Assembly (NCBI RefSeq): GCF_006547045.1
Contig: NZ_CP041242.1
Span: 2,800,001 to 2,864,000 of the forward strand
Reading direction: 5' to 3'
DNA from: Lysobacter alkalisoli
GTDB lineage: Bacteria; Pseudomonadota; Gammaproteobacteria; Xanthomonadales; Xanthomonadaceae
Length of the DNA: 64,000 nt
The notes beneath the pieces were generated by a model. It did no database searches. It was given only the letters and a program-made list of their open reading frames with translations, and was not told the DNA's origin. Shown piece after piece: positions 16,079 to 59,112 of this stretch (positions are counted from its first letter, which is position 1; the number at the start of each line of letters is the position of its first letter). Both the position numbers and the translations under genes were made by a program.

Positions 16079-17551
16079 ATGCAGAAGAAGTCTCACGATC
16101 CCGAGATGCTAGCAGAGCCTGATGAAGCGCAGCGCTGGCGCGAGCGCGATCTGGCCGTGCTGTGGCACCCGTGCACGCAGATGCGCGAGCATCCCGATAC
16201 CCTGCCCCTGCTGCCGATCGCGCGTGGCGAAGGCCCGTGGCTGATCGGCCGCGACGGCCGCCGCTATCTGGATGCGATCAGCAGTTGGTGGACCAATCTG
16301 TTCGGCCATGCCGAACCGCGTATTGCCGCCGCGATCGCGCAGCAGGCCTCGACGCTGGAGCACGTGATCCTGGCCGGCTGTTCGCACGCGCCCGCAGTCG
16401 AGCTGGCCGAGAAACTGCTCGCGATCGCCCCGAAGGAGCCGGCCCGGGCACCGCTCTCGAAAGTGTTCTACGCCGACAACGGCTCGGCCGGAGTCGAGGT
16501 CGCCTTGAAGATGGCGTTCCACTGGTTCCGCAACCGCGGCATCGAGGGACGGCACAAGTTCATCGCACTGGAAGGCGGCTACCACGGCGAAACCCTCGGT
16601 GCGCTCGCGGTCGGCGACATTCCGCTGTACCGCCGCGTCTACGCGCCACTGCTGACCGAGGCGCTGTTCGCACCCTCGCCGGACGCCTACCTGTGTGAGC
16701 CCGGCGAAAGTCCAGCCGACCGCGCCCGCCGCGCCGCCAATGCCCTGCGCGAACTGCTCGAACGCCATGCCGGCGAAGTCTGCGCGCTGATCCTGGAACC
16801 GCGACTGCAATGCGCCGGCGGCATGCGCATGCACGACCCGCTGTACCTCAGGCTCGCACGCGAGCTGTGCGACGAACACGGTGTGTACCTGATCGCCGAC
16901 GAGATCGCCGTTGGCTTCGGCCGCACCGGCACGATGTTCGCCTGCGAGCAGGCCCCGCCCTCACTCCCCTCTTCCGCCAGCGGGACAGGCAGTGAGGGCA
17001 ACACGGCTGGCATCCAGCCGGACTTCCTCTGCCTGTCCAAGGGTCTCACCGGCGGCTCACTGCCGCTGGCGGCGGTACTGACCACCGAATCGATATACGA
17101 GGGATTCCTCGATGATTCGCGCGAAAAGGCCTTTCTGCATTCGCACAGCTACACCGGCAACCCGATCGCCTGCGCCGCCGCGCTGGCCACGCTGGCCATC
17201 TTCGAGCAGGACAACGTGATCGCCCGCAACCGGTTTACCGCCGCGCGCATGACTGAGCTCGCCGCACCGTTTGCCGACCACCCGCATGTTGCCGACGTGC
17301 GCCAGGCCGGGATGGTGGTCGCGTTCGAACTGACGAACAACGGCAACAAGGCCACGCCGTTCGATCCGGCCTCACGCATCGGCCTGCGGGCCTACCGCGA
17401 GGCGCTGCGCCGTGGCGTGCTGCTGCGGCCGCTCGGCAACATTCTGTACTGGATGCCGCCGTACTGCGTGGATGACGAGGCGCTGCAACTGCTGGCCGAC
17501 ACCACGCGTACGGCCATCGACACGGCCATCGGGGAAGCCGCATGCGCCTGA
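16079..17551 (+). CDS. bioA: Adenosylmethionine-8-amino-7-oxononanoate aminotransferase BioA
   Basis: BioA makes 7,8-diaminopelargonic acid in biotin synthesis, using SAM as amino donor and PLP as cofactor. At 490 residues it is longer than usual (about 430-450). Motifs: WHPCTQM near residue 30, SSWWTNLFGH near 68, ADNGSAGVEVALKMA, YHGETLGAL, and IADEIAVGFGRTG. The PLP Lys is at about residue 321 in CLSKGLTGGSLPLA. Part of the extra length is a 43-bp palindrome at 16957-16999 read as PPSLPSSASGTGSEG between FACEQA and the PDFLCLSKG segment. The last 10 bases overlap rsmE. Confidence 0.94.
   Translation: MQKKSHDPEMLAEPDEAQRWRERDLAVLWHPCTQMREHPDTLPLLPIARGEGPWLIGRDGRRYLDAISSWWTNLFGHAEPRIAAAIAQQASTLEHVILAGCSHAPAVELAEKLLAIAPKEPARAPLSKVFYADNGSAGVEVALKMAFHWFRNRGIEGRHKFIALEGGYHGETLGALAVGDIPLYRRVYAPLLTEALFAPSPDAYLCEPGESPADRARRAANALRELLERHAGEVCALILEPRLQCAGGMRMHDPLYLRLARELCDEHGVYLIADEIAVGFGRTGTMFACEQAPPSLPSSASGTGSEGNTAGIQPDFLCLSKGLTGGSLPLAAVLTTESIYEGFLDDSREKAFLHSHSYTGNPIACAAALATLAIFEQDNVIARNRFTAARMTELAAPFADHPHVADVRQAGMVVAFELTNNGNKATPFDPASRIGLRAYREALRRGVLLRPLGNILYWMPPYCVDDEALQLLADTTRTAIDTAIGEAACA
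16957..16999. repeat. Palindromic element inside bioA, in frame
   Basis: The 43-bp stretch has 9-bp perfect arms, gccctcact and agtgagggc, around a core with cgccagcggg. It resembles the common xanthomonad repeat that starts gccctcaccc and has a cccgc-gcggg core (compare 35604-35650 in tsaB). It keeps the bioA frame and would form a surface loop before the PLP-lysine segment. Confidence 0.6.
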
Positions 17552-18279
17552 CCCGCGTCCACGTCGATGCCCCCCTGATCGCCGGCAGTGAACTCGACCT
17601 GCCCGAAGGCCCCGCCGCACATCTCGGCCGCGTGTTGCGGCTCGGCATCGGCGACGCCTGCGTGCTGTTCAACGGCGACGGTCACGACTACGCCGCCCGC
17701 ATCACCGCCGCCGGCAAGCGCGAGTTGCGCGTCGCCGTCGAACAGGCGACGAGAATCGAGAATGAATCCCCGCTCGCGATCACCCTGCTGCAGGGCGTCG
17801 CCCGCGGCGAGAAGATGGACCTGATCCTGCAGAAGGCGACCGAACTCGGCGTCGCCGCGATCGTGCCGCTGTGGTCGCAGCGCAGCGAAGTGAAGCTCGA
17901 CGGCGCCCGCGCCGAGAAGCGCCTCGTCCACTGGCGCAACGTCGTCGTTTCAGCCTGCGAACAGTCCGGTCGCGCCCGCGTCCCGACCGTCGCCGAACCG
18001 CTGGCGCTGGACAGGGCACTGGCCGCATTGCCACAAGGCGGTCTGCGCCTGACCCTCGACCCCGAGGGCATACACACCTTTACCACTCTCGACGTGGACC
18101 GACACCAGCCCATCCACCTCGCCATCGGCCCCGAAGGCGGCTGGTCCCCGCGCGACCTCGAACAACTGCAGGCCGAAGATTTTGCCGGGCTGAAACTCGG
18201 CCCGCGCATCCTGCGCACCGAAACCGCCGGCTTGGCCGCGATCGCGGCGCTGCAGGCACGGTTCGGGGATTTCGGCTGA
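17542..18279 (+). CDS. rsmE: 16S rRNA m3U1498 methyltransferase RsmE
   Basis: RsmE methylates N3 of U1498 in 16S rRNA. The 245-residue protein has an N-terminal PUA-like domain (HLGRVLRLGIGDACVLFNGDG) and a C-terminal SPOUT fold with the trefoil knot: ATELGVAAIVPLWSQRSEVK, SACEQSGRARVPTV, LAIGPEGGWSPRDLE and LGPRILRTETAGLAA, the last two forming the SAM site. It overlaps bioA by 10 bases and is probably co-translated. It converges with the next gene on the minus strand; the 90-base gap shows no obvious terminator. Confidence 0.96.
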   Translation: MRLTRVHVDAPLIAGSELDLPEGPAAHLGRVLRLGIGDACVLFNGDGHDYAARITAAGKRELRVAVEQATRIENESPLAITLLQGVARGEKMDLILQKATELGVAAIVPLWSQRSEVKLDGARAEKRLVHWRNVVVSACEQSGRARVPTVAEPLALDRALAALPQGGLRLTLDPEGIHTFTTLDVDRHQPIHLAIGPEGGWSPRDLEQLQAEDFAGLKLGPRILRTETAGLAAIAALQARFGDFG

Positions 18280-18369
18280 CCGGGACGGACAACCTGACGC
18301 CTGCTCGAACCGCTTCGCAACTGATCGCCAGCTCAGTAACGAAGACCCGACCGTCCTCCGCTGCGCAGC

Positions 18370-18876
18370 TCAACCCTTCCCGTCGCCCGCATACCTCAGG
18401 CGGGTCACGAACGCCGCCAGTCCCCGGCTGCCGAACACCAGCCAGCCACCAAGCAGCAATTCGACGACGGTCGCCGCCGCATTCGCCCAGTTTTCGGACC
18501 CGAATTCGATGGGATACGGCTGCCGGCTGGTGTGGAACAGGTAAGTGATCCAATAGGTCATATCGACGATCGCCATCGCCAGCACCCAGAAGCCGATTGC
18601 GGTCAATGCCAGCTCAAGCGCGGTGCGGGATCCGGGATCGACCAGCGGCCGCGGCTCCTTCATGACCGGCAACAGCTTCCGCGCCACGGTCAGCGGGAAG
18701 AACCACAACAAGGCCGCAACCAGCAGGAACGGCACGGATACGGCCGCCGCCAGCAGGAGCATATCCCTGACTGATTCCGGGGCTATCGCGACCGAAGCGA
18801 GGTAACGGATCTGCACCACCACCAGAAAGATGGCGAACAAGCGCGTGGCGATGGCGACAATGTCTTCCCGACTCAT
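18370..18876 (-). CDS. Polytopic membrane protein, unknown function
   Basis: A 168-residue protein with four hydrophobic helices (about residues 8-30, 39-60, 87-110 and 133-152). It starts at ATG 18876, preceded by a good ribosome site (aggagca); the longer frame to 19056 has no support. A possibly exposed loop carries HTSRQPYPIEFGSENWAN. I do not recognise the family. It follows, on the same strand, two small membrane genes and a nagX-like gene, so the four may form one unit. Confidence 0.75.
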   Translation of the reverse strand: MSREDIVAIATRLFAIFLVVVQIRYLASVAIAPESVRDMLLLAAAVSVPFLLVAALLWFFPLTVARKLLPVMKEPRPLVDPGSRTALELALTAIGFWVLAMAIVDMTYWITYLFHTSRQPYPIEFGSENWANAAATVVELLLGGWLVFGSRGLAAFVTRLRYAGDGKG

Positions 18877-18961
18877 TCCCTGCTCCTGTGGTGGCAAGTC
18901 GAATATGGCCCCGATTATTGCCCAGTGAGGGCGCTGGATGACAGGCGGTGGGGCAGCGTGC

Positions 18962-19138
18962 TTATCGCGCTTTGACCTGGACAGCCTTGCCCGACTCGAC
19001 CCGCCAGCGCCACAGGCAGATGCCCAGCGGCAGCAGGAAAGTTTCAGCCATCCCATCGACCAGCAGCATGCCGATGATGCCGATCGCGCTGATCACCGCG
19101 AGCACGGTCACCATCTTCAGTGCGTTGCGCCCCTTCAT
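18962..19138 (-). CDS. Small membrane protein, unknown
   Basis: A 58-residue product starting MKGRNALKM with one or two hydrophobic segments (VTVLAVISAIGIIGMLLVDG and ETFLLPLGICLW) and a basic tail. The ATG at 19138 overlaps the inferred stop of the upstream small gene (ATGA at 19135-19138), a typical coupled arrangement that supports the start choice. No family recognised. Confidence is moderate because the gene is short. Confidence 0.55.
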   Translation of the reverse strand: MKGRNALKMVTVLAVISAIGIIGMLLVDGMAETFLLPLGICLWRWRVESGKAVQVKAR

Positions 19139-19349
19139 GCCGATGCTCCGCTGGTTCCGGCATTCCTGTCGATGTTCTTGTCCACAGCCAGGTGCCATTG
19201 GCGGTGATGAACAGGGGCAGATCGAGATGCAACAGACGCGTACCGCGTCCGCGCCGTAGCACGCCGAAGGCGATGCGCTTGACGTAGGGCACGTACACCA
19301 CCAGCCCCGACAGCAACGACGCCAGCATCAGCATCGTCCAGGACAGCAC
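19135..19349 (-). pseudogene. Small membrane protein, apparently frameshifted
   Basis: After the nagX stop there is aagagg, then a GTG start at 19349 and a sensible product: a hydrophobic N-terminus (VLSWTMLMLASLLSGLVVYV), then a basic and hydrophobic region ending LFITANGTWLWT. From about 19182 the codon pattern fails in this frame and continues in another as KNIDRNAGTSGASA, ending at a TGA that overlaps the next ATG (ATGA). One extra G in the tgtgg run (giving W-L-W-D-K-N-I-D) would join the two parts into about 71 residues. So this is either a one-base deletion or a sequencing error. Function unknown. Confidence 0.5.
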
Positions 19350-19361
19350 ACGCGGCCTCTT

Positions 19362-20422
19362 TCAGACCTTGAAATGGATCCGCCGCGCATCCAGCCAGTG
19401 CACCACACCCCACCACACCGCGACGAATGCGAGCGCATACGCCAGTGACGGCAGGTATGGCCCGGAACGCGGCGTCATCCAGTCGGCGAAGCCGTGCCGA
19501 TACAGCGGTTCCAGCCAGCCGGCCGCGGCCAGTGCATACAGCATGAAAGCCGAACCTGCGTAGGCGGCAATCGCATTGACTCCGAAGGTACGGCCCAGCG
19601 GCGGCCAGCCATGGATGTCGATGAGCCGGTGACAGAGCGCGAGCAGACTGCAGGCCAAACCACCACTCCACAATACGTAGGACGGCGTCCACAGGTTCTT
19701 GTTCAATGGCAGCCACATCGACCAGGCCGCTCCAAGAGCCAGCAACACCGCCGCTGCCAACCACAGCGTGCGCAGCCGCCCACGGCGCAACCAGTCGCCC
19801 GCGCGCAGACCGAGCAGCGTGGTCGCCAGCGCACCGAGCGTGCTGACCAGGCCCTCGGGATCGTGGCCCTGCCCGCTTGCGGCGTCATACTGGTAGGCGT
19901 GCGGGCCCAACACGGCGGTATCGACGCGGCTGACGATATTCGCGTTCGGCTCCAGTGAACCGCCGACCGCCAGCAGCGCCCAGTAGCCCACCAGCAGCAC
20001 CACGATCGACCCCCACTGCATGCGCGGCGGCAGCCACAGCATGATCAGCGCGGCGGCGAGATAGCACAGGCCGATCCGCTGCAGTACGCCCATCACCCGG
20101 TAGTAGTCGAGGTCGAACGCCAACCATGCGCACAGGTGCAGCAGCAGGCCGAGACCGATGATGCGCGCGGCACGGCCCAGCACCGGCCGCACCAGGGTGG
20201 CGGGGACGACGCCCTTTTCCAGCTGGCGACCGAGGGCGAGACTGATCGACACCCCGACGATGAACAGGAACAGCGGGAAGATCAGGTCGGTCGCTGTGAA
20301 ACCATGCCAGTCGGCATGCAGCAGCGGCGCGTAAACACGGCCCAATCGCCCGGGTTGTTGACCAGCAGCATTGCCGCCACGGTCAGTCCGCGCAGCGCAT
20401 CGACCGAAGCCAGCCTCGACAC
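19362..20422 (-). pseudogene. NagX-like / DUF5009 acyltransferase-family membrane protein, frameshifted
   Basis: NagX-type proteins are polytopic and related to heparan-alpha-glucosaminide N-acetyltransferase; in Xanthomonas NagX is linked to N-acetylglucosamine use. The N-terminus (V at 20422: VSRLASVDALRGLTVAAML, LVNNPGDW) is in one frame, and the rest (RVYAPLLHADWHGFTATDL to the end at 19362) is in another. The break is at a CCC run (GGG on the coding strand) at 20341-20343; one more G gives D-W-G-R-V-Y-A-P-L-L, which fits the family. The second part is intact and has about nine membrane helices. A TTG at 20345 could only give an N-terminally truncated product. Confidence 0.8.
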
Positions 20423-20477
20423 GCCGACAGCCTGTCCGGAAACCGGGGTCAAACCGGCGACGGCAACAGTGCGAGGC

Positions 20478-20978
20478 TCAGGCGGCCTGCGCCGCCGCCA
20501 CTTCGGCGATCCGCGCTTCGATGAAAGCGAGGTCCGGCAGCAGGGCGGGATCGTCGTTGTGCAGCACCCGGGCCAGCACGCCTTCGGGCAGGTCGTCCTG
20601 CTCGCCTGCAACGCCAAGTCCGGCCCGGCTCACCGTCACCAGGCGCGGGAAGCCCTGTGCCACGATCGCGAAGTACGGTGCATGGGAGTCGCCGCCCAGA
20701 GCCTTCAGCACTACCACCTTGCTGCCGAGCCCGGGCTGCTCCCCGGCGATTCCGGCCAGCCGGGAGAACGCCACCAGGGGCACCCGCCAGCCGTGCCAAC
20801 GGATCCGCCCGAGCAGCCAGTCCGGAACGTCGGCGTCATAGGATTCGGGCGGCGCATAGGTCAACACCTCGGCGATTGTCGCATTCGGCAACAGCAGGCG
20901 CGCGTCGGCAACCTGGATCAGCACGCCACGGATATCGTTGACTGGGGCCGCGGTTTCTTGGCGGGTGGACGCATGCAT
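20478..20978 (-). CDS. chpC: ChpC-like CheW-domain protein
   Basis: A 166-residue CheW-type adaptor at the 3' end of the Pil-Chp cluster. The CheW pattern is visible: VADARLLLPNATIAEVLTY (usual position of the first strands), GRIRWHGWRVPLVAFSRLAG (the W-R-G-x-x-x-P-L-V-like core), then KVVVLKALGG and YFAIVAQGFPRLVTV. In P. aeruginosa ChpC is the second CheW homologue of the cluster, thought to couple additional input to ChpA. I chose ATG 20978; the frame beyond runs into chpB. It starts 11 bases after the chpB stop. Confidence 0.8.
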   Translation of the reverse strand: MHASTRQETAAPVNDIRGVLIQVADARLLLPNATIAEVLTYAPPESYDADVPDWLLGRIRWHGWRVPLVAFSRLAGIAGEQPGLGSKVVVLKALGGDSHAPYFAIVAQGFPRLVTVSRAGLGVAGEQDDLPEGVLARVLHNDDPALLPDLAFIEARIAEVAAAQAA

Positions 20979-20989
20979 CGTCGTATTCC

Positions 20990-34659: not shown

Positions 34660-34781
34660 GGCGATACCCGGGCTGGGCCCGGGCATCCCCGAAGTTTGGT
34701 TCTTCCGGCAAGTGAGGGGGAGTTCGCCTTCTGCCGCTTGCGTTTTGCGTTTGATCACCGGCTCTCACCGCTACCTGGCTG

Positions 34782-34887
34782 TCCCGACGCGACCTGCCGG
34801 CCTTGACGGCGAATGTCCCCCGGCCGCCGCCCGTGGCGGCGGCCTCCTCCTTGATTTCGCCGTCAAGGCCGGCAGGCCACGTCGGGA
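34782..34887 (-). repeat. Nested double hairpin element, copy 1
   Basis: Outer arms 34782-34812 and 34857-34887 pair over 31 bases with two mismatches; inside lies a 10-bp GC hairpin (34822-34831 with 34835-34844). Read on the minus strand, the core is gcgaaatcaaggagga, hairpin, gggggacattcgc. The same core occurs in copy 2 at 34990-35035 on the other strand, with unrelated arms. It lies in the 548-base gap between the convergent tonB and tsaB genes, which holds no gene I can support. Confidence 0.8.
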
Positions 34888-34961
34888 TCGCGCGGCCACG
34901 CTGGAACCCGAAGCAGACCCTCCCTGGGAGTGCGCTTCTGGAACCACCGGTCATGTCGGAA

Positions 34962-35060
34962 CGCCGGGGGCGAAGGCCCTTGGGTGCGAAATCAAGGCGG
35001 AGGCGCCGGCCCTGGCCGGCGCCGGGGGACATTCGTACCCAAGGGCCTTCGCCCCCGGCG
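34962..35060 (+). repeat. Nested double hairpin element, copy 2
   Basis: Outer arms 34962-34985 and 35037-35060 are perfect 24-bp reverse complements (containing gggggcgaaggccc). The core is gcgaaatcaaggcgga, a 10-bp GC hairpin (35002-35011 with 35014-35023), then gggggacattcg. The core agrees with copy 1 at all but one base of 16 on the left and all 12 on the right, while arms and hairpin sequence differ but remain self-complementary, as expected for selected structure. Confidence 0.8.
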
Positions 35061-35186
35061 CCCCGATCACCCAACAGACCCGGCGCTTTCCCCTTGATTG
35101 GGCGAAGAACCCAAAGTCTGCAGCGCAAACCTTGGGCCCCATCAATGCACCTCCACACCCCCATTCGCGCTGACTCAGGGGGCTGA

Positions 35187-35212
35187 GGATCGCGCCCAAG
35201 GACGCTCCTACG
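35187..35212. repeat. REP-like palindrome (gcgctcctac family)
   Basis: The sequence atcgcgcccaaggacgctcc followed by tacg at 35189-35212 is the second copy in this window of the short palindrome ending gctcctac (see about 7150-7171). It touches the 3' end of tsaB. Confidence 0.55.
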
Positions 35213-35960
35213 AACGTGATTGACGCAGGGCCTGCTGCTCGGCGATGGTCAGGGCGACGTTGTTGCGCAGGTAGGCGGGTTCGGCCTGTTCCGGGGCCAC
35301 CGCCTCGCCGCGGGCGAACGCGGCCGCGCCGAGCCGGGCGACGTCGGCGGCGTGCGGCAGTTCCTGCGCGGCAACCGATGCCAGTCGACCGCCCAGGTGC
35401 CGCTGAAGTGCGCCGTCGAGTGCATCGAAACCGGTGCCGACGCCGTGCCAGCCCTCGCCGCCCGGCAAGACGACATCGGCCGGCGGCAGCACGCGTTCGC
35501 CGTCGAGAAGGACGGGCTCGCCATCGCGACGCTCGAACGCGGCGACGTAGATCTCGCCCATGCGCGCGTCGATCGCCGCCAGGATGCGTTGGCCGTCGTG
35601 TCTGCCCTCACCCCTGCCCTCTCCCGCTAGCGGGAGAGGGGGACAAGGTGCGCAAGCGCGCATCGACAAGGCGGCCAAGGTCGACACCGGCAACAGCGGA
35701 CGGTCGAGCGCCAGCGCCATGCCCTGCGCCAATGCAATCGCCAGGCGCACGCCAGTAAACGCGCCGGGACCGCGGCCGACCGCGATCGCGTCGAGCTGGC
35801 TGCGCGCGATGCCGGCTTCGGCCAGCAATTCACCGGCCCACGGCAGGGCCAGCTCGGCATGCCGGCGCGGGGCGATCTGGAAGCGCTCGACAACCTCGCC
35901 GTCCAGCCAGAGGGCGACGGAGCAGGCTTCGGTGGCGGTTTCGAGGGCGAGGATTTTCAT
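35208..35960 (-). CDS. tsaB: tRNA t6A biosynthesis protein TsaB
   Basis: TsaB is an ASKHA-fold scaffold that activates TsaD in making threonylcarbamoyl-adenosine at position 37 of ANN-decoding tRNAs; it is essential in most bacteria. The 250-residue protein begins MKILALETATEACSVAL, and has AVGRGPGAFTGVRLAIALAQG and DARMGEIYVAAFER. Between residues about 104 and 119 there is an extra peptide, ACAPCPPLPLAGEGRGEG, encoded by a palindromic repeat (35604-35650) that keeps the frame. The C-terminus (PAYLRNNVA) is standard. It is 19 bases downstream of the helicase gene on the same strand. Confidence 0.95.
   Translation of the reverse strand: MKILALETATEACSVALWLDGEVVERFQIAPRRHAELALPWAGELLAEAGIARSQLDAIAVGRGPGAFTGVRLAIALAQGMALALDRPLLPVSTLAALSMRACAPCPPLPLAGEGRGEGRHDGQRILAAIDARMGEIYVAAFERRDGEPVLLDGERVLPPADVVLPGGEGWHGVGTGFDALDGALQRHLGGRLASVAAQELPHAADVARLGAAAFARGEAVAPEQAEPAYLRNNVALTIAEQQALRQSRS
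35604..35650. repeat. Palindromic element inside tsaB, in frame
   Basis: The element starts gccctcacccctg and contains a perfect 24-base palindrome at 35617-35640 (ccctctcccgct paired with agcgggagaggg), followed by ggacaaggtg. This is the well-known xanthomonad intergenic repeat, here read as CPPLPLAGEGRGEG within TsaB. Confidence 0.8.
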
Positions 35961-45040: not shown

Positions 45041-45096
45041 GGCGATACCAGCATAGTGCGCCGGCCGGCCATCGACACAGTGCTTCATGAAGCCGT

Positions 45097-47885: not shown

Positions 47886-47895
47886 GTCCAGCCTG

Positions 47896-47928
47896 CAGGA
47901 GGGCGCCTCGGTGCCCTCCTGTTCCTTC
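47896..47928. terminator. Bidirectional intrinsic terminator
   Basis: Perfect 9-bp arms caggagggc (47896-47904) and gccctcctg (47913-47921) with an 8-base loop are followed by ttccttctc. It lies between the convergent secreted-protein gene and hrpA and can serve the plus-strand gene; on the other strand the following bases are less U-rich. Confidence 0.75.
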
Positions 47929-50024
47929 TCAGCCCAGCTGCGCCACTCGTTGCGCGAGCTTCTTCGGCGACACGCCGCCACGGGTGCCGAGTTCCTGCGC
48001 GAACAACGATACCCGCAGCTCCTCCAGGTCGCGGGCGAAGTCCCGCCACCCGGGGGTGTTGCCCCGCCCTTCGTTGCGCGCGGCATCGAGCGCATCGACG
48101 AAAGGCTTGAGTTCCAGCATCCGCGACTGGTCGCGCGACGGATCGCGCAGCGCGCGTTCTCCGCGCAACGACAGTGCCTTCAGGTAGCGCGGGTATTCAC
48201 GCAGGGTTTCGGCCGGCACGTCGCGCAGGAATCCCGGCGGCGTCAGCGCGGCCAGATGCGCGCGCATGTCGTCGAGGTTGCCGCTGGCCCAGCCCATCAG
48301 CGGCGATTCCAGCTTCGCCCGCACCTCCGCCACCGCGGTGAGGATGGCCTCGGCCTGCCTGAGCCGCTCGACCGCCTCCGCGAACAGCGCCTTGCCGACC
48401 GACTCGACCCTGACGGCGAAGGCATCGGCATCGCGGATGTCGCCGAGCGCGTCGGTCGCAAGCGCTTCGAACGCGCCGTCGACCAGATCGTTGCGAAGAC
48501 GGTCGCCGTCCTTCAATCCGTCGCGTCGCGGCGCAGCCGCTTCGATCGCCGCGTACAGCAGTCCGGTCTTCGGCGACACCGGCAACTGCTTGCGCGCCTG
48601 TTTCATGCGATCGGCAAGGGCCAGCGCGAGCAGGCGACGGACACCGCGCGGATGCGCGACCTCGGCCACCTCGCGCTCGGCGTGCACACGCAGCGAAGCA
48701 CTGTCGCCGTCGTCGTGCAGCGCCGGCCAGGCCGGCACGCCACCCGCACCGGGGACCGAGATCGGAATCGCCTGTTCGGGAAACGCCGTCAGACCTTGTT
48801 GCGCCAGGCCGTCGGCGGCACGGGCGGCGAAGGCGTTCGCGGCACGCTCGCCGAACCTGCGCTTCAGCTCATCGAGGTCGCGGGATTCTGCAAGGACATG
48901 CCCGACCCGCGCGGTCTTTCCGTCGCGATCGAGCAGGCGCAGATTGATGCGCAGGTGCGGCTCCAGCGCAGTCTCGTCGAAATCGACCGCCGCGACCTCG
49001 GCACCGGTCAGCTTCTTCAGGAAGCGGGCCAGGGTGCCGGCGAAGGTGTCGGTGGCTTCCTGGTCCGGATGTGCCGGATGCGCCTCGCGGAATGCATGCG
49101 CGAAATCCGGCGCCGGCACGAAGTTGCGGCGCTGCGCTTTCGGCAGGCTCTTGATCAGTGCCGCGGCCTTGTCCTCGACGAAGCCCGGCGCCAGCCACGA
49201 CAGCCGCACCGGGTCGAGCGCGTTGAGCAGGTGCAACGGCACCACGACAGTCATGCCATCATCCGGCGCCCCCGGTTCGAAGCGGTACTTCACCGCCAGC
49301 CGCGCATCGCCGAGCGCGATGTATGGCGGAAAGAGCGTGGCATCGCTCTCGTCGACGACCATCAGGTCATCCAGCGACCATTCCAGCTTCGCCTTGTCCG
49401 CCGCCGGCAGCTTGCGGTACCAGGCATCCAGCGCCTGCGCGTTGTGGACCTCCGGCGGCAGCCGGTCGAGGTACCAGCGGGCCATCCAGTCCTCGTCGAC
49501 GACCAGGCCGGTGCGACGCTGCTTGGCCTCTTCCTCGTGCGCCTTCGCCAGCGTGGCGAGGTTGCGGGAGAGGAACGCGCTGCGGGTGTTGATCTCGCCG
49601 GTGACCAGGGCATCGCGGGCGAAGATCGCGCGGCTTTCCTCCGGGAACAGCGCGCCGTAGTGGATCGGCTTCTTCGGCGCCAGCACCAGGCCGAACAGGC
49701 TGATCTGCTCGCTGCCGACCACCCGCCCCTGCGAACGCGCCCAGCGCGGGTCGTGCTGGCGGCGTGCGAGAAGGTGCGGCAGTTCGGCGATCACCCACTC
49801 CGGTTCGATCGCGGCGTTGGTCAGCGCCCATACCCGCTCGGTGTCGAGCAGGGTCGCCGACAGCACCCACGGCGGTGGCTTCTTCGACAACGGCGAGCCG
49901 GGGAACAGCTGGTAGCGGCGCCCGCGCGGACCTTCGTACAGGCCCTTGTCCCCGCGGTGCGCGACCTGGGTCGGCAGGCCGGCGAGGATGGCGCGGTGGA
50001 GGGTCGTGTAGGCGGCGGCATCCA

Positions 50025-50102
50025 GTAGCCCGGGCAAGGCCAAAGGCCGCACCCGGGAGCCCTCCCGACCTGCCCCCGGGTGCGCTTCGCTTGCCCGGAC
50101 CG
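50025..50102. repeat. REP element in hrpA, in frame (gtagcccggg type)
   Basis: Arms gtagcccgggcaaggcc...cgcacccggg and cccgggtgcgcttcgcttgc followed by ccgga are roughly complementary around a short loop (cctcccgacctg). The same family occurs at 59132-59199 between recQ and the next gene. Inside hrpA it adds about 25 residues, including EAHPGAGREGSRVRPLALPG, without breaking the frame. Confidence 0.75.
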
Positions 50103-51096
50103 CGGTCTGCCAGCCGATGTCTTCCACCATCAACTTCAACTGCCTATGCAACTCGCGCCATTCGCGCATGCGCAGGAAGCCGAGAAAATGTTTCTCGCAC
50201 CACTTGCGCAGCCGCGACTGGGTCAGCTCTTCGTGCGCGACCTGATAGGCCTCCCAGAGCTTGAGGATGCCGACGAACTCGGACTTCGGATCGGCGAACT
50301 CCGCATGCGCGGCATCGGCGGCGCCACGCTGGTCGGCAGGGCGCTCGCGCGGATCCTGGATGCCGAGGAAGGATGCGATCGCAAGCATCTCGCGCAGGCA
50401 ACCATGGCTGTTGGCAGCGACCAGCATCCGCGCCAGCTTCACGTCGACCGGCAGTCGCGCCATCAGCTTGCCGGTCGCGGTCAGGCCACGTTTGTCGTCG
50501 ACCGCGCCCAGCTCCGACAGCTGCTGCCAGCCATCGGCAATCGCGCGCGAATCCGGCGCCTCCAGGAACGGGAAACTCTCGATGTCGCCCAGCCCGAGCG
50601 CCAACATCCGCAGGATCACCCCGGCCAGTGCGGTACGACGGATCTCGGGGTCGGTGAACTCGGGCCGCGATTCGAAATCGGCCTCGGAATAGAGCCGATA
50701 GCACACGCCCTCGGCGATTCGCCCACAACGGCCCTTGCGCTGGTTGGCGCTGGCCTGGCTGACCGGCTCGATGTGCAGGCGGTCGAGCTTGCCGCGCGGA
50801 CTGTAGCGCTTGACCCGCGCCAGCCCCGGATCGATCACGTAGCGGATCCGCGGCACCGTCAGCGAGGTCTCGGCGACGTTGGTCGCCAGCACGATCCGGC
50901 GCCGGACGCCGGGGTTGAACACCCGGTCCTGATCGCGCGCCGACAGCCGCGCGTACAGCGGCAGCACCTCGGTATCGCGATATTTGCGTCGCTCCAATGC
51001 CTGATGGACATCGCGGATCTCGCGCTCGCCGGGCAGGAACACCAGGACGTCTCCGCGTGGGTCCTCGCGGGTGATCTCGTCGCAGGCGGCCAAAAT

Positions 51097-51138
51097 GGGG
51101 TCAGAGTCGTTTCTCGCTCGGGATGATGACTCTGCCCC
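51097..51138. repeat. GTCAGAG-type palindrome in hrpA
   Basis: Left arm ggggtcagagtc (51097-51108) and right arm gactctgcccc (51128-51138) differ only by one missing base in the right arm. Elements with ggggtcagagtc arms are frequent in Xanthomonadaceae and belong to the type mobilised by REP-associated tyrosine transposases. This copy lies between the RecA-like domains of HrpA. Confidence 0.8.
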
Positions 51139-52077
51139 GTTCTCGACCCCGTGCCCTCCTCCTCCAGGTAGCGCACCTCGACCGGATGCGTCCGCCCTTC
51201 GACCTCGATCACCGGCGCATCATCGAAATGCGCGGCGAAACGGGCGGTGTCGATGGTCGCCGAGGTCACGATGACCTTGAGGTCGCGGCGCTTCTTCAGC
51301 AGCTGCTTCAGGTAGCCGAGCAGGAAGTCGATGTTGAGGCTGCGCTCATGGGCCTCGTCGATCAGCAGGGTGTCGTAGCGCGACAGCCAGCGATCGGACT
51401 GGATCTCGGCCAGCAGGATGCCGTCGGTCATGAACTTGATCGCGGTCTGCTCGCCGACGTTCTCGGTGGACACTTTGCCTTCAAACCGGACCTGGTAGCC
51501 GACCGCGCCACCCAGCGGCACGTGCAGTTCCTCGGCGACCCGACGCGCCACCGCACGCGCGGCAATCCGCCGCGGCTGGGTGCAACCGATCAGGCCCGCC
51601 GCACCGCGGCCGGCGGCCAGGCACAGCTTCGGCAACTGGGTGGTCTTGCCCGAGCCGGTCTCGCCAGCCACCACGATGACCTGGTGCTTGCGGATCAGTT
51701 CGACGATGCGGTCGGCTTCGCGTCCGATCGGCAGCGACTCGTCCGCCGGCGCCTGCGGCAGGGACGCGGCGCGCGCTTCGCGGCGGGCGACCGATTCCGT
51801 CAATGCCTTGGTGAAGTCGGCGCGGGCTTTCTCGTCGGCCGGCCGCCCTTTCCAGCGCGACCACAGGCCATGCAGACGGCCACGGTCGCGGCTCAGGGCA
51901 CCGTCGATCGCCCGCCGGGCCTGCTGCAACGCATTGCCCTCCCTGTCTTTTCGACGGGATGGCCGTGACGTGGAATTTGCATTCGGACGGATAGACTCCA
52001 TCTGTTCTTTTGAGCCGTATGACGTTTTGCGAATCAGGCGACATTGTCGCCGCAACGCATCCCCAAGGAGAAACCGC

Positions 52078-52641
52078 ATGGCCAAGTCCAAGTCCCCCAA
52101 GCCATCCAAGGCCGCAAAGAAGGCCCCGAAACCGGTCGCATCGCCGGCATCCGGTTCCGACGCGCCGGCCATCGACATCGGCATTTCCGGCGCCGACCGC
52201 AGGAAGACCGCCGACGGGCTGTCGCACTTCCTGGCCGACGCCTACACGCTGTATCTGAAGACCCACAACTTCCACTGGAACATCACCGGGCCGATGTTCA
52301 ACAGCCTGCACGTGATGTTCGAGACCCAGTACACCGAGCAATGGACGGCGCTGGACGAGATCGCCGAGCGGATCCGCGCACTGGGCTTCAATGCCCCGGG
52401 TTCCTACGCGGAGTTCACCCGCCTGTCCTCGATCCCGGAGGAGCCTGGCCTGGCCGACGCTGCCGACTGGCGCGAGATGGTGCGCCAGCTCGTGGTCGGC
52501 AACGAGGCGGTCTGCCGCACCGCGCGCAAGACGCTCAAGACCGCCGACAGCGCAGGCGATGACCCGTCCGTCGACCTGATGACCCAGCGCCTGCAGACCC
52601 ACGAGAAGTATGCGTGGATGCTGCGGTCGCTGTTGCAGTAA
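52078..52641 (+). CDS. dps: DNA protection during starvation protein Dps
   Basis: Dps forms a 12-subunit ferritin-like shell that oxidises Fe2+ with peroxide and compacts DNA. The 187-residue protein has a Lys-rich N-terminal tail ([19 protein letters not shown]) suited to DNA binding and the ferroxidase region [20 protein letters not shown] followed by [17 protein letters not shown] (key His, His, Asp, Glu residues present). ATG 52078 is preceded by aaggag at 7 bases. The 76-base divergent gap to hrpA holds its promoter; no OxyR site was identified by eye. A hairpin (52662-52683) follows the stop. Confidence 0.95.
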
Positions 52642-52661
52642 GGGACCCCACCCCCACCCAA

Positions 52662-52683
52662 CCCTCCCCCTGAGGGGGGAGGG
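52662..52683 (+). terminator. Hairpin after dps
   Basis: The stretch ccctccccctgagggggg followed by aggg forms a GC hairpin, then cttctta. It is preceded by ccccacccccacccaa, the usual lead-in of a xanthomonad intergenic repeat. It may act as the dps terminator. Confidence 0.5.
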
Positions 52684-52702
52684 CTTCTTAGCTGCCGTAG
52701 CC

Positions 52703-52791
52703 CGTAGGATGGGTAGAGCCGCAGGCGGAACCCATCAATGACGGGTTCCGCATCGATGATGGGATTCGCCTTCGGCTCATCCCATCCTACG
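52703..52791. repeat. Palindromic repeat (gtaggatggg type)
   Basis: Ends ccgtaggatggg (52702-52713) and cccatcctacg (52781-52791) are complementary, with an inner pair aacccatc / gatgatggg and gacgggttccgc in the centre. This type of intergenic repeat is common in proteobacteria. It lies between dps and the convergent 1,410-residue gene. Confidence 0.8.
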
Positions 52792-52808
52792 AATCTGCGA
52801 GTCACCCC

Positions 52809-55800
52809 TCAGTTCTTTTCATCCGGAAGCGGCGGCGGGGTGCTGATGCTCTTCGGGCGTGAGCGCCAATAGCCGCCCTTGACCCAAGCGCGGAAGCCCC
52901 AGCCGGCCCAGCGCAGCACGGCGACCGCCAGCCACAACGCCCAGGCCAGCATCGCGGTGCGGTACAGCCACATCGGCATCGTGATGGCAGAGCCACGCGG
53001 CAGGATGTCGGTACTCTGGTCCGCGAACCAGCTCAGGGCGTGTGCAGTCGAGCCGTTGCCGCGGATGTGCATGTCCGGACTGCCGAGCAGGCCGTAGGGA
53101 ATCGCCGCCACCAGGGCGAACGCGGCGGCGAGGGTCAGCACGACCAGGCCGATCTGCGCCAGGTTGAAGCCCAGGCGGTTGAAGCGCATGCCATTGGAGC
53201 CGATGTTGCCGGCGTCCGTATCGACGGGTGGCACGGCATTGCGGTCGCGCCAGGCCACGGCGAACAGCCAGGCCACGACCACGAACAGCGCCAGCCACGA
53301 GAAGGTGGAGAAACCGATCCCGAGCAGCAGCCATTCGTGCAGCTTCAATGGCGCCCAGCGCAGGCGGCTCAGGGCGAAGGCCACCAGCACGAGCACCAGC
53401 AGCTCGCCCCAGTACAGCACCGCCGGCCCCAGCCGCGGTCCTCGGGTCAGCAATACCCAGCGATCCCGTGGCAGGTCCAGCCGGAGGTCGATGTTCGCGG
53501 CCGGCAAGCCCAGGTCGATCGACGGCGTGGTGTTGCGCATGGCCACACCCTCGCTGTCGCGGAAGCGGATCTCGAACCGTTGCACGCCCGGCAGCAGGGG
53601 CAGGCTCAGGCGGCCGTCCTGCGGACGCAGATTGAGGACTTCGCTGCCGCGCCGGACCGACAGCACTTCCGCGCCGGCCGGCAGGACGAGGGTGTGGTCG
53701 CCGCCCTGGCTGGCGCGCACGGTCAGACCCAGCGTGTGTTCGCCGGCACGCTGGCCGATCTGGCTCTGCAGTCGCACCGCGTCGATGGCGCGGGTGGCAC
53801 CGGAGGCGGCGGCGGGACGGGACACGGTGATCTTCAGCGTCTCGCCCGGCAGCGGGTAGAAGCGGAACACGTGCCAGTCGTTGGCGTCGTCTTCGGGCAG
53901 CGGGGCGCTTTCGGGCACGCCTTCGAAGCCGAGGTGCCACAGCGGGCTGGCGCTGATTTCCCATACTTCGGCGTGATCGTTCAATGCAGGCGCGGTCAGG
54001 GTCAGGGTGTCGGTCTTGTCGAGGCTGCCCCGCCACTCGGCGGTGTCGTCGCCATCGGGAATCGGCAGTTCGACATGGCCCGCGCGCACTTCCAGGCCCG
54101 CGGTGCCGACCTTCTCGCCCGCGACCAGAGGCAGCTTCACGGTGAAGCCGCCCTCTTCAGGTGCGAGCCGCTCCGCCACCGAGCGCAGATGCCAGTCCAG
54201 CCCCAGGTCGAGGTGCCGGGTCAGGCGTACGTACGGCGGGAACTCCTGTGCGCCCAGGCGCGTGGCGGCGCCATCCGGGGCGGAACCGGTCTCGCGGCTG
54301 CGAGCCAAGGTCAGGCTGCCGGCAGGCAGGCGGTTGTCGGTGATGCCGCTGGCCTGCCAGCCGGCACCGTCGAACGCGATCCGTGCCGGCGGCAGCGGAA
54401 ACGCGAGCACGGCCTTGTCGGCCATGGCGCGGGTCTCGATCTCGACGCGATGCACGCCGCGATCCAGCACGATCCAGCGGCGCCCCTGCGCCTGCAGTAC
54501 GCCTCCGGCATCGGCGCCGTCTACGCGCAGGCGCAGCGGCGACAGGTCGACATCGTCGACAGGCAGCGGAACGAACACGCGGGCGGCGGCGTGCACATCC
54601 AGCGCAATGCGCACGTCGTCGCCGTCGGCGCGCACCTGTGCGGCGGCGATCGTGGCGCAATCCGGCGCGCAGTCCGGCAGGCGGGTCAGGCGGTTCTTCA
54701 GTTCCTCGAGCAATTCCGGCGAGGGCATCGACGCCTGTGCGTGGGCAGGCGAGACCATCATTGGTCCGGCCAGCGCGAATGCGGCAAGCGCGGCCGCCAC
54801 CGGACGCAGGGGCGGCCAGCGCAAGCGGACACCGAGCACACGCAAGGCCAGCAGGGCCAGCAGCGCGACCGCGAGCACGCGCAGCAGTCGGGTCAGCCAC
54901 GGTGGCGAGATCAGCAGGCGCACACTCTGGTCCTGGGTGATCGGGCCGCTCCAGCGCAGCCGGTAGCTGTGCCCGCCCTGCCAGCTCGGCAGGCCGCGGC
55001 CGGTCTGGACCACCGTACCCTGGGTATAGCGATCGAGCACGTCGGCGCGCTTGATGCGGCTGCCGGTGACCATGATGCTGTCGAGCTCGACTCCCTGCCC
55101 GACACTGACCGGGGTAGGCGGAGGTGGAGGAAGTGCGGGCATATCGACCGGCGAAGGGTCATCGAATACCACTGCCGGAACCTCGGGCGGTGGCGCCAAC
55201 TCCCTGTACGCGTACGCCTCCTCGGCAGCTGTAGCCGCAGCATCGGCCGCTTCCATCGCCATCTTCTTGCTCATCCCGACATGCAGCGCCGGCATCAGCG
55301 CCGCCCCTTCCAGTTGCGGGTGCAGGGCCATGCGCAACTGCGTCGCCACGAACGGCAGCGCGATCAGTACGAGCAGCACCAGCGCCGCGCGCCGCGCCCA
55401 TTCGCCGATCCTGCGCAGGCGACCGGCAGGCAGCGCCTGCACGATCAGAGCGAGCGCCAATACCACACCAAGACTCAGGATCGGCGCACCGCGCTCGTGA
55501 TAGGCAAGCAGCAGGTACACCGCCGCGAGCCCCGCACCGGTCCAGCCGAACAGCCGCCACGACAACAACGCGATCACCGCCGCGATGAACACGTCCAGCA
55601 GGGTCCAGCGCGACATCCAGCTGCCATCGGCGCGGTCGGCGCCTGGTGCGGCGAACAGGCGATAGCCGTAGGGCAGGTGCACGGTGGTGGTGACCGTGTC
55701 GAAACTCTGCCGCCAGCCCGCGATCGGCCACTTTCCGCCGCCCGATTGCAGGCGCAGGCCGGCATCGAGGCCTACTCGCGGTGTCCGCCATTCGACCCCG

Positions 55801-57041
55801 GCGGCACCCTCCTCGTCCAGGCGGGTCACCAGCAACGGGGCGTTCTCGACCAGCGACTGCGCACGCTCCAGTATGTAGGGCGCAGCGGCTTCCAGCCGCC
55901 AGTCGCGGCGCATCTCGCCTTCCATGCGATCGCGCAAGGTCCAACCGCCACCAGCAAAATCCAGCCAGGCTTCACGTTGCAGACTCAGGCGGTTGCCCTC
56001 GTCGGCAGCCACGCCGCGCGCACGCTCCTCGATGGTGATCGTCTGCGACGGCTCCAGCGCGAAGGCCGGCAGTGCGTGCCAATCCTCCGGGACGCCGGCA
56101 TTGTCCGGATCGACCTGCACCGGACCGCCGGCGCTGGTGGAGCGCAGTGCCGGGGCGGCCTCGTAGCTCCATATTTCCTGTGCCGGCCACGGTTTGCCGG
56201 CCTCGGTCTGGGCGGCTAGTTGCACTTGCTGCAGCGGTTCGAGCATGCGGGCGCGCAGCACCAGTTCGGCCTGCTCCGGCTGGACCTGCACGCGCAGGCG
56301 GCCATCGGATTCCAGTCGCGCCGGCCAGTCGCCGTCCAGCGTCAGCGGCGCGAAGCCGGCTGGCAGCACCGGCCCGATCAATTCTTCGCGCGCCTGCCCG
56401 GCTCCGGTCAGGAGTATCCGTGTTTCCAGCTCCGCGGGCAGGCCGTCACCGAGCTTGCGGTAGACGCGGATGTCAAGCGCATCGGCCTCCGGTGCGGCGG
56501 ATTCGCCACGGCCCAGCACGAGGTTGTCGCCGTCACGCTGCAAGGGTCGGATCGACTGACCGTCCACCTGCAATTCAACCAGGCTGACCCCGGCCGGCAG
56601 TGCCAGTGCCTGCGGTCGCTGTGCCCACGGGATGCGCCCACGCAGTTCGTAATGACCCGGATCCAGCCACACACCCGGCCGGCCGGCATGCCTGACCACC
56701 GGCACCGCATTGCCATTGGCGGTCACTTGCTGCGGCCAGTACTGGACATCGCCCGGAAGCACCACCCTGCCGCGCTTCTGAAGCGTATAGCGCAGCGCGA
56801 ACGCGACCCCACCGGCATCGGCCTGCACATGCAGTACGCCGGGCCAGACGCAGATCCGCTGCGCGCCCTTCTGGCCGGCACCGGCCAGCAGCGGGCAATC
56901 GCGCCCGGGCTCATCCTGCAACACCCATTCGCGCCACGGCTCCAGGGGCGCCGGCACCGACACCGGTTGGGCCTGGGCAATCAGGGCACACGACAGCGAC
57001 AGGGCAGCGGCAAACCAGCAAATCACGGTTCTGCGTATCAC
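52809..57041 (-). CDS. Very large membrane/periplasmic protein with TonB-receptor-like segment
   Basis: A 1,410-residue protein of no family I can name. GTG 57041 is preceded by aaggag and gives a signal peptide ([20 protein letters not shown]). Residues about 25-470 are beta-rich; about 480-575 hold three membrane helices; a Pro-rich linker follows; residues about 651-690 contain [20 protein letters not shown], like the N-terminal plug of TonB-dependent receptors. Helices at about 717-740 are followed by a second signal-peptide-like stretch ([13 protein letters not shown] through SPAHAQA, about 750-770), another beta-rich part to about 1,215, then three or four C-terminal helices. No neighbour shares the strand, so no operon clue exists. 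Confidence 0.8.
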
Positions 57042-57252
57042 GGCTCGACTCCTTTGCAAGCACGATGGCGGCAACGATACAACGGCCGATGTTCCGCCGT
57101 GGGGTCAAGGCAACGCTGAAAAGTCGTCACTCCGGCAAAAAAAGCCGGGGGCCCGCTCTTCGGCAGAGGCTCGACTTGTTCAGCGTTTCCCCTACCTGCC
57201 GACGCGATGTTTTCCGACATCCGGGCGCCATCCGCCTGTTACCCTTTTGCGC

Positions 57253-59112
57253 ATGGAGAACACCGCGCTTGACCTGCTTCGCACCGTTTTTGGACATCCC
57301 GACTTCCGTGGCGAGCAGGCCGAGATCGTCACCCATGTCGCCGACGGCGGCGATGCCCTCGTGCTCATGCCCACCGGCGGCGGCAAGTCGCTGTGTTACC
57401 AGCTGCCGGCGATGCTGCGCGACGGCTGCGGTATCGTCATCTCGCCGCTGATCGCGTTGATGCAGGACCAGGTCGAAGGCCTGCGCCAGCTCGGCGTGCA
57501 TGCGGCCTTCCTGAATTCATCGCTGGACGCCGAAACCGCCGCACGGATCGAGCGCGAATGGCTCGGCGGCGAACTCGACCTGCTCTACGTCGCACCCGAA
57601 CGCCTGCTGACGAGCCGCATGCTTGGTTTGCTCGACCGCGTTCACCAACATGGCCGGCTGGCCCTGTTCGCAATCGACGAAGCCCATTGCGTCTCGCAAT
57701 GGGGCCACGATTTCCGTCCCGAATACCGCCAGCTGACCGTGCTCCACGAGCGCTGGCCCGACGTGCCGCGGATCGCGCTGACCGCCACCGCTGACCCGCC
57801 GACCCAGCGCGAGATCGCCGAGCGCCTGCAGCTGGACGACGCGCGCCGCTTCGTCAGTTCCTTCGACCGTGCCAACATCCGCTATACCGTGGTGCAGAAG
57901 GACAACGCCAGGCGGCAGCTGTTCGATTTCCTGCAGGGTCATGCTGGCGAGGCCGGTATCGTCTATTGCCTGTCTCGGCGCAAGGTCGAGGAGATCGCCG
58001 AGTTCCTCGCCGGTCATGGCATCGATGCGGTGCCCTACCACGCCGGCATGGACGCACGCTTGCGTGCGGAGAACCAACGCCGTTTCCTGCACGGCGAGGG
58101 CGTGGTGGTAGTTGCGACGATTGCCTTCGGCATGGGTATCGACAAGCCGGACGTGCGCTTTGTCGCCCACATGGATCTGCCCAAGTCGATCGAGGGCTAT
58201 TACCAGGAAACCGGTCGCGCCGGCCGCGACGGCGAACCGGCCGAAGCGTGGATGTGCTACGGCCTCGGCGACCTGGTGCTGCTGCGGCAGATGATCGAGC
58301 AGTCCGAATCCGGCGAGGAGCGCAAGCGGCTCGAACACCGCAAGCTCGACGCCCTGGTCGGCTACTGCGAATCGATGCGCTGCCGCCGGCAGGTACTGTT
58401 GTCCAACTTCGGCGAGGAATACTTGCCTGTCGAGGCACCGCAGAGCTCGCCTTGCGGTGCCTCTGGTTCAATCTGTGGCAACTGCGACAACTGCCTGCAG
58501 CCGCCCGAGGCCTGGGATGCCACCGAAGCCACACAAAAAGCCTTGAGCTGCGTCTACCGCAGCGGCCAGCGTTTCGGCGCCGCCCATCTCATCGACATCC
58601 TGCGCGGCAGCGACAGCGAGAAGATCCGCCAGTTCGGCCACGATCGGCTCAGCACCCATGGTATCGGCGCCGACCTCGATGCGAAGACATGGCGCGGCGT
58701 GTTCCGCCAATTGGTCGCGCACGGCCTGCTAGACGTGGATGCCGAAGGCTATGGTGGCCTGCGCCTGACCGCCGCCAGCCGCGCAGTGCTCAAGGGCGAG
58801 CAGACCGTGATGCTGCGGAAGATCGTGGTCAAGCGCGAACGCACCCGCGTTGCGGCGAGGACCCCGGCTGCCGTCCTCGCCCTCGCCCCGGCCGATGTCC
58901 CGCTATTCGAGGCCCTGCGCGAGATGCGTGCACGGCTGGCACGCGAACAGAACGTGCCGGCCTATGTGATCTTCCACGACCGCACCCTGCGCGAGATCGC
59001 CGCCCGACGTCCGGCCAGCGAGGGCGAACTGGCCGGCATCGGCGGCATCGGCACCGGCAAACTGGAGCGCTACGGCGGGCTGGTGCTGGATACCGTGGCT
59101 GCTGCCGGCTGA
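57253..59112 (+). CDS. recQ: ATP-dependent DNA helicase RecQ
   Basis: RecQ unwinds DNA 3' to 5' in recombination and fork repair. The 619-residue protein has Walker [20 protein letters not shown] motif [32 protein letters not shown], and [14 protein letters not shown] with the arginine finger. The zinc-binding Cys follow (RCRRQVLL, then SICGNCDNC), then the winged helix and a C-terminal HRDC domain ([20 protein letters not shown]). Between the first and the later Cys there is an extra stretch, [14 protein letters not shown], encoded by a small palindrome (58432-58463). I start at ATG 57253; TTG 57247 is less likely. Confidence 0.96.
58432..58463. repeat. Small palindrome inside recQ, in frame
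   Basis: Perfect 11-bp arms gaggcaccgca (58432-58442) and tgcggtgcctc (58453-58463) with a 10-base loop. It falls between zinc ligands, a region where RecQ proteins are usually shorter, and the frame is kept. Confidence 0.65.

What the first reader, a model, noticed from the sequence alone, without database searches (positions are those of the whole stretch)
16957..58463. Palindromic repeats are read in frame inside conserved genes
Five palindromic elements lie inside bioA, tsaB, recQ and hrpA (twice) and add peptide segments without stopping translation. At least two (35604-35650, 50025-50102) belong to families seen between genes in this same window or known from xanthomonads. Rickettsia palindromic elements are a described parallel, where repeats insert into genes as extra loops. 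Such behaviour by REP-type elements in a free-living gammaproteobacterium would be a source of new protein segments.
Basis: partly seen in the sequence, partly recalled or inferred. Interest (0 to 1): 0.75.

Follow-up and report, generated by a model that had tools for sequence, protein, structure and literature searches.

The report
Palindromic DNA repeats inside core genes
In a free-living relative of Lysobacter, short palindromic DNA repeats sit inside many core genes without breaking the reading frame and so code for extra protein loops; this kind of event is already known, but its extent here is unusual.

Summary
Four of the five elements hold. Palindromes in bioA, tsaB, recQ and the first hrpA site are read in frame and add residues that most relatives lack. 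The second hrpA element (51097-51150) shifts the frame and splits hrpA. The recQ palindrome was found once only, so it is not shown to be a repeat. The bioA and tsaB elements belong to one family (CCTCTCCCGCNAGCGGGAGAGG, 39 loci) resembling published 'intrastrand triplex' repeats. I place 28 loci between genes or at gene ends and 11 inside genes, all 11 in frame (recD, homoserine dehydrogenase, gcvP, icmF twice, murB, rnr, bioA, tsaB, pgeF, an E2 gene). A GGGGTCAGAGTC family adds in-frame copies in icmF and priA. Of 15 repeat insertions found inside genes, 14 keep the frame. The hrpA linker is a recurrent site: relatives carry about ten different palindromes there. Best reading: repeats insert widely, selection removes frame-breaking copies, survivors sit in tolerant loops. 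In-frame REPs in genes, xanthomonads included, were published in 2013; this is a rich new member of a known kind. No benefit to the proteins is shown.

The parts
16079..17551 (+). bioA, intact frame carrying an 18-residue insert
   Evidence: NCBIfam bioA; relatives' BioA
16957..16999 (+). in-frame palindrome in bioA, diverged copy of the CCTCTCCC family (2 mismatches)
35208..35960 (-). tsaB, intact frame, one match in the genome
   Evidence: NCBIfam TsaB
35604..35650 (-). in-frame copy of the CCTCTCCC family in tsaB (0 mismatches); right arm GGGGTGAGGG as in the triplex motif
50859..52184 (-). N-terminal part of hrpA, one frame
   Evidence: NCBIfam HrpA profile 11-249
47929..51093 (-). remainder of hrpA, in a different frame
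   Evidence: NCBIfam HrpA profile from 270
50025..50111 (-). in-frame GTAG-ended palindrome pair in the hrpA linker (site S1)
   Evidence: two further copies of the type in the genome
51097..51150 (-). GGGGTCAGAGTC terminal-inverted-repeat element in hrpA (site S2), frame-shifting
57247..59112 (+). recQ, intact frame
   Evidence: NCBIfam recQ
58432..58463 (+). in-frame palindrome in the loop between zinc-binding cysteines of recQ; one place in the genome
   Evidence: zinc role of the cysteines recalled
52662..52683 (.). intergenic hairpin resembling the CCTCTCCC family
   Evidence: sequence
52703..52791 (.). intergenic palindrome with GTAGGATGGG ends (GTAG-type)

Best explanation
Several families of short palindromic repeats insert at many places in this genome. 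Most surviving copies lie between genes. Copies that land in a gene survive mainly if the net change is a multiple of three, no stop codon is read and the site is a tolerant loop or linker; they are then translated as roughly 5 to 40 extra residues. Shown: the repeats, their frames, their absence in orthologs for the genes compared, and no gene-interior copy of the main family found out of frame. Inferred: that purifying selection, not insertion preference, makes the frame bias; that the proteins are made and work (tsaB and murB each gave one match in this genome; that cells need them is recalled); that an IS200-like REP-associated transposase moves the GGGGTCAG family. What moves the CCTCTCCC family is unknown.
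For: CCTCTCCC family: 48 matches per strand, 49 positions in my rescan, merged by hand to 39 loci. 11 lie inside genes, all in frame (names). Of 19 loci between same-strand frames, Pfam put different families on the two sides in 17 directly and in one (2985221) by reusing the hit of the same ORF under another locus; one (3668929) had no hit on one side (37 of 38 flank ORFs scanned). Nine more lie between opposite-strand frames by the coding model alone. rnr spacing is 42 nt in 15 of 15 measured relatives (16 tried) and 78 here; murB 48 nt in 10 of 10 (11 tried) and 63 here; recQ 15 nt in 27 of 29 and 57 here. The same tsaB loop in G054 holds another CCCTCTCCC-type hairpin, in frame. GGGGTCAGAGTC copies are in frame in icmF and priA. 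14 of 15 in frame has p = 2e-6 if one in three were expected. All three frames of the element are used (peptides, read by hand), as passive tolerance predicts. hrpA linker in 80 named loci: 80 of 80 in frame, 14 of 80 with a hairpin at p <= 0.01. Predicted hrpA segment: linker residues 121-150 at mean pLDDT 49-56 between helices at 85-88. One REP-associated tyrosine transposase with GGGGTCAGGT ends lies in the genome (its NCBIfam score, 72, is below the curated cut-off of 80).
Against: No expression or activity data. tsaB, gcvP and hrpA loops vary in length among relatives, and G033 has a tsaB loop of 81 nt with no hairpin, so extra length need not come from a palindrome. Insert sizes do not match palindrome ends exactly (bioA 54 nt net against a 43-nt palindrome; rnr 36 net against about 44). 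The flank calls rest on a small coding model (176 kb). Three copies counted as outside genes lie within the last codons of an ORF (100625, 1754173, 3708562). Of five structure models three were poor (mean pLDDT 44-46). One frame-breaking copy survives, in hrpA. Orthologs of recD, homoserine dehydrogenase, pgeF, icmF and E2 were not compared residue by residue with relatives.
Confidence: 0.85

Rival explanations
1. The repeats have evolved to be protein-compatible, like a 'coding' selfish element: lengths and stop-free frames are selected so that insertion in genes is tolerated more often than chance.
For: The core is free of stops in all frames of both strands, and the full palindrome in two of three. 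11 of 11 gene-interior copies are in frame.
Against: All three frames are used, and net lengths differ (15, 36, 54 nt), so no fixed 3n unit is seen. The window is 68% GC, where stop-free frames are common. The GGGGTCAG family includes a frame-breaking copy.
Confidence: 0.1
2. Some sites, such as the hrpA linker and the gcvP and tsaB loops, are insertion targets at the DNA level, not only tolerated sites.
For: About ten different palindromes in the hrpA linker across genera; the gcvP loop holds inserts with similar peptides in G000, G007 and G009; the tsaB loop holds CCCTCTCCC-type hairpins in G000 and G054.
Against: A permissive linker gives the same pattern with no targeting. I did not test for a shared target sequence nor compare other variable linkers.
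Confidence: 0.12
3. The hairpins are not insertions but GC-rich low-complexity linkers that happen to fold.
For: GC 68%; the recQ hairpin was found once; most hrpA linkers show no significant hairpin (45 of 58 and 59 of 80 have p > 0.05); G033's long tsaB loop has none.
Against: The bioA and tsaB elements match a family with 28 loci outside genes; hrpA linkers hold perfect stems of up to 30 bp, with 0 of 33 control windows of that locus as good (L300).
Confidence: 0.05

Closest known systems
Intragenic REPs (GTAG and CGTC families; 2013, PMC3733652; section 15 and found passages read)
   Same: Short palindromes inside ORFs of free-living bacteria, Xanthomonas and Stenotrophomonas included; helicase and repair genes hit; tolerance in linkers or loops proposed; different REPs at about the same site in recB of two Xanthomonas species.
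   Different: The CCTCTCCC family carries neither GTAG nor CGTC ends. Here the flanks of copies outside genes were controlled, and one linker (hrpA) holds about ten different palindromes over many genera.
Rickettsia palindromic elements (RPE), as described in PMC2229807 and PMC10969869 (passages read; the original papers not held or not read)
   Same: Palindromic repeats fused in frame into conserved genes.
   Different: RPEs are given there as 105-146 or about 150 bp, each with a conserved peptide. Here most elements are about 40-60 bp and use three frames. A longer shared peptide of about 40 residues was seen in recD and icmF only (by eye).
Intrastrand triplex motifs of E. coli (TMECO; PMC4666352, passages read)
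   Same: CCCTCTCCC-loop-GGGAGAGGG followed by GGGGTGAGGG; the tsaB copy follows this pattern.
   Different: The passages read describe distances to neighbouring ORFs and do not mention coding copies; I did not read the whole paper. Triplex formation was not tested here.
TIR elements of TIR-associated tyrosine transposases (GGGGWSAS ends; PMC3733652, passages read)
   Same: The hrpA S2, icmF and priA elements begin with GGGGTCAG; this genome's REP-associated tyrosine transposase is flanked by GGGGTCAGGT repeats.
   Different: Beyond GGGGTCAG the ends of the transposase locus and of the elements are similar but not identical.

Membership tests
Protein-coding palindromic repeats (RPE-like class) | Multi-copy palindromic element found both between and inside genes | tested here: met
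   28 loci outside and 11 inside genes for the CCTCTCCC family
Protein-coding palindromic repeats (RPE-like class) | In-frame insertion in conserved genes, absent in orthologs | tested here: met
   bioA, rnr, murB; tsaB with one long exception; five further genes not compared residue by residue
Protein-coding palindromic repeats (RPE-like class) | Conserved encoded peptide in one frame | tested here: not met
   Three frames used; not filed as an RPE
GTAG REP | GTAG tetranucleotide at one end of a short stem-loop | tested here: met
   hrpA S1 element has GTAG next to CCCGGGCAAG; not met for the CCTCTCCC family
Intrastrand triplex motif | Purine/pyrimidine hairpin followed by a third purine stretch GGGGTGAGGG | tested here: met
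   tsaB copy by sequence against the table in PMC4666352; the bioA copy is degraded
Intrastrand triplex motif | Forms a triplex | not testable with these tools
   needs CD, NMR or footprinting
TIR/TIRYT elements | Ends shared with a tyrosine transposase locus | tested here: inconclusive
   GGGGTCAG shared, the following bases differ
TIR/TIRYT elements | Mobilised by that transposase | not testable with these tools
   needs a transposition assay

The most novel reading that the evidence does not exclude
In Lysobacteraceae, palindromic repeats are a steady supplier of new linker and loop segments in core proteins, and certain linkers, hrpA above all, are repeatedly renewed by whatever palindrome family is active in a lineage, perhaps with insertion preference for those sites.
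Probability: 0.3. Interest if true: 0.75.

Novelty: new member of a known kind. Interest (0 to 1): 0.52.

Why it matters
It gives a free-living bacterial family in which the fate of repeat insertions inside core genes can be measured: how many are tolerated, where, and how they erode (the shorter bioA inserts of G011 and G013 may be eroded copies). On crude assumptions (uniform insertion, 89% coding density assumed, not measured) about 15-22% of frame-compatible insertions would have been tolerated. The hrpA linker, with different palindromes in different genera, is a natural experiment on how protein linkers gain length.

Tried and rejected
A first coding-frame script mixed left and right flanks for minus-strand genes; its frame table was discarded and replaced. 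In one search minus-strand loci were read on the wrong strand; one search corrects this. That each insert equals one exact palindrome was rejected. That copies outside genes are hidden frame breaks was rejected by the Pfam control. My hairpin score wants a loop of at least 3 and so underrates perfectly self-complementary centres (it gives the tsaB element only 6); hairpin counts in hrpA are therefore likely low. The pattern was too strict and missed the window's own S1 copy; that may miss further GGGGTCAG copies. Rfam found nothing in the window at gathering scores. Paper searches (listings seen) showed no report of the CCTCTCCC family inside genes or of the hrpA linker; most subscription papers are not held, and Ogata 2002 was asked for and not held.
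Full report
Where it lies. The window is bases 2,800,001-2,864,000 of a single-contig genome of 3,857,091 bases, 67.7% GC in the window. It is a member of the Xanthomonadaceae/Lysobacteraceae: relative G005, placed in the same genus, has a contig of 340,495 bases, the length of a named contig of Lysobacter spongiae, and the named relatives are mostly Lysobacter, Luteimonas, Pseudoxanthomonas, Stenotrophomonas, Thermomonas and Arenimonas.

The five elements. bioA: relatives read EQA-GIxPD; this genome has 18 residues between, encoded by the palindrome GCCCTCACT...AGTGAGGGC and some flanking bases. 16 of 18 relatives examined (29 had loci) lack it; G011 and G013 have 9 and 8 residues there, perhaps eroded copies. 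tsaB: 78 nt between fixed anchors, 18-63 nt in 28 of 29 relatives with loci, 81 nt without hairpin in G033; in G054 the same loop holds another CCCTCTCCC-type hairpin (an earlier reading by pattern, saw 20 of the 29). recQ: 57 nt against 15 nt in 27 of 29 relatives with loci, 27 and 33 nt in two; against solved RecQ the gap falls between the cysteines of the CRR and CGNCDNC motifs, which I recall to bind zinc. hrpA S1: 99 nt of linker. hrpA S2: 80 nt, a frame break, seen also as two HrpA matches in two frames. So four are in frame, three of these four in types found elsewhere in the genome; the recQ palindrome was found once, the hrpA S1 type at two other places, the S2 type in icmF and at 3,455,250. 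Of the two other S1-type copies, L159 lies between frames and L160 is unclear on one side.

Genome-wide test. The pattern CCTCTCCCGCNAGCGGGAGAGG with up to 3 mismatches has 48 matches on each strand and none for the reversed control; my rescan of the fetched loci gives 49 positions, which I merged by hand to 39 loci. With a three-phase coding model trained on 123 ORFs (176 kb), 11 loci lie inside one open frame with coding sequence on both sides: recD, homoserine dehydrogenase, gcvP, icmF (two), murB, rnr, bioA, tsaB, pgeF (two adjacent elements) and a lipoyl E2 gene (names). One search also flagged 356969 and 736158/736231 as same-frame; one search shows different ORFs on the two sides, and I count them as outside. 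Of the other 28 loci, 19 lie between same-strand frames and 9 between opposite strands (the nine rest on the coding model alone). Pfam gave different families on the two sides for 17 of the 19 directly; for 2985221 one side was taken from the same ORF scanned under another locus, and for 3668929 one side had no hit (37 of 38 flank ORFs scanned). No gene-interior copy of this family was found out of frame. Three copies (100625, 1754173, 3708562) lie within the last codons of an ORF; I count these as outside.

Other families. The GGGGTCAGAGTC type was found at three places in this genome, all inside genes: hrpA (frame broken), icmF and priA (in frame; the best PriA profile covers the protein in one stretch). 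Adding hrpA S1, 14 of 15 repeat insertions inside genes are in frame; p = 2e-6 if one in three were expected. One Y1 transposase was found in the genome; it matches the REP-associated tyrosine transposase model at 72 bits, under its cut-off of 80, and is flanked by GGGGTCAGGT repeats.

Orthologs of the other genes. Spacing between fixed anchors in rnr is 42 nt in 15 of 15 relatives measured (one more gave no anchor) and 78 nt here. In murB it is 48 nt in 10 of 10 (one gave no anchor) and 63 nt here. In gcvP it varies, 42-180 nt in 11 relatives, all multiples of 3, with 72 nt here; G007 and G009 carry LPPQAG and LPPPAGEGARRADGG peptides, of the same repeat type as far as the peptide shows, in G007 as tandem copies. 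I did not compare relatives for recD, homoserine dehydrogenase, pgeF, icmF and E2; there the evidence is profile matches on both sides and, for icmF, an alignment to solved IcmF that leaves the two N-terminal inserts unaligned.

The hrpA linker. In 58 family genomes, own included, the linker is 24 nt in 13 and up to 291 nt in others; 57 of 58 are multiples of 3, the exception being G017, whose hrpA match is also split. Nine of 58 have a hairpin that none of 100 dinucleotide shuffles reached and 13 of 58 have p <= 0.05, one of these (G073) a trivial 24-nt linker; the window's own S1 has p = 0.05. In 80 named loci (the best 80 of 469 found, themselves from a capped list), 80 of 80 are multiples of 3, 14 of 80 have p <= 0.01 and 21 of 80 p <= 0.05. 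The two sets overlap: together they give 126 distinct linkers, 21 with p <= 0.01, where about one would be expected by chance. By eye, not by program, the palindromes fall into about ten types, among them GTCATCCCGAGCGCAGCGAGGG (G055), GTAGGGCGGGT (G037, G040), GTAGGGGCTTCAGCCCC (G054), CCCCCTTTGAAAAAGGGGG and near forms (seven named loci, one of them the record of G013), GGAACGAGGAACGAG (G030, L278), GGGGTCAG (G032, L292, L312) and a 30-bp perfect stem in L300. A prediction for the window's segment on 34 sequences puts linker residues 121-150 at mean pLDDT 49-56 between helices at 85-88; two of five models were usable, three poor. In E. coli HrpA the corresponding stretch is about 8 residues.

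How it works. Shown: position, frames, copy numbers, absence in the orthologs compared. Inferred: insertion at many sites followed by purifying selection that leaves frame-compatible copies in tolerant loops. With 28 copies outside genes, an assumed coding density of 89% and uniform insertion, about 227 gene hits would be expected, 50-76 of them frame-compatible; 11 remain. This is a rough figure. Use of three frames and differing net lengths argue against an element adapted for coding.

What is known. Intragenic REPs of the GTAG and CGTC types, with cases in Xanthomonas and Stenotrophomonas, were listed in 2013 with the suggestion that linkers tolerate them (PMC3733652: section 15 and passages). 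RPEs are described in two reviews (PMC2229807, PMC10969869: passages). The CCTCTCCC hairpin matches the intrastrand triplex motif of PMC4666352 (passages). A recent REP survey states that REPs seldom overlap protein-coding regions (PMC12306157, passages). Among relatives the family is patchy at 2 mismatches: 19 of 40 genomes have it, own included, and four of six same-genus relatives have none. So this is a new, unusually rich member of a known kind; what I did not find in print are coding copies of the triplex-type family and the serial use of the hrpA linker.

Noticed in passing
G000 2,272,942 (L315): A REP-associated tyrosine transposase flanked by GGGGTCAGGT inverted repeats, a possible mover of the GGGGTCAG elements; a second right end follows about 110 bp downstream.
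   Followed up: partly
L010 (recD) and L004 (icmF): A longer shared peptide of about 40 residues (SLLPxAGDK...LDDEVARR...QRARRADEGA) is inserted in both proteins, RPE-like in length.
   Followed up: partly
window 50859-51093: hrpA is split by a frameshift in an otherwise complete genome; pseudogene or assembly error.
   Followed up: partly
L052 (G054 tsaB): An independent CCCTCTCCC-type hairpin, in frame, in the same tsaB loop of another genus.
   Followed up: partly
window 34759-35066: Two long neighbouring inverted repeats (55 and 35 nt arms) just beyond the 3' end of tsaB, which also pair with each other.
   Followed up: no
window 6998-7106: Perfect 29-bp inverted repeat with a 51-nt spacer, overlapping long ORFs on both strands.
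   Followed up: no
G007 gcvP (L205): Tandem copies of a repeat-type peptide (SLPPQAGS) inside glycine dehydrogenase.
   Followed up: partly
L148, upstream of murB: Another repeat-like stretch (VIPAKAGTH...LDPGFRRDDE) just before murB.
   Followed up: no
L302-L305, G012, G075 hrpA linker: Stenotrophomonas, a Pseudoxanthomonas and some other relatives share a long conserved linker (TRGQLHRAARLAREGK); most of these show no significant hairpin (L303 does).
   Followed up: no
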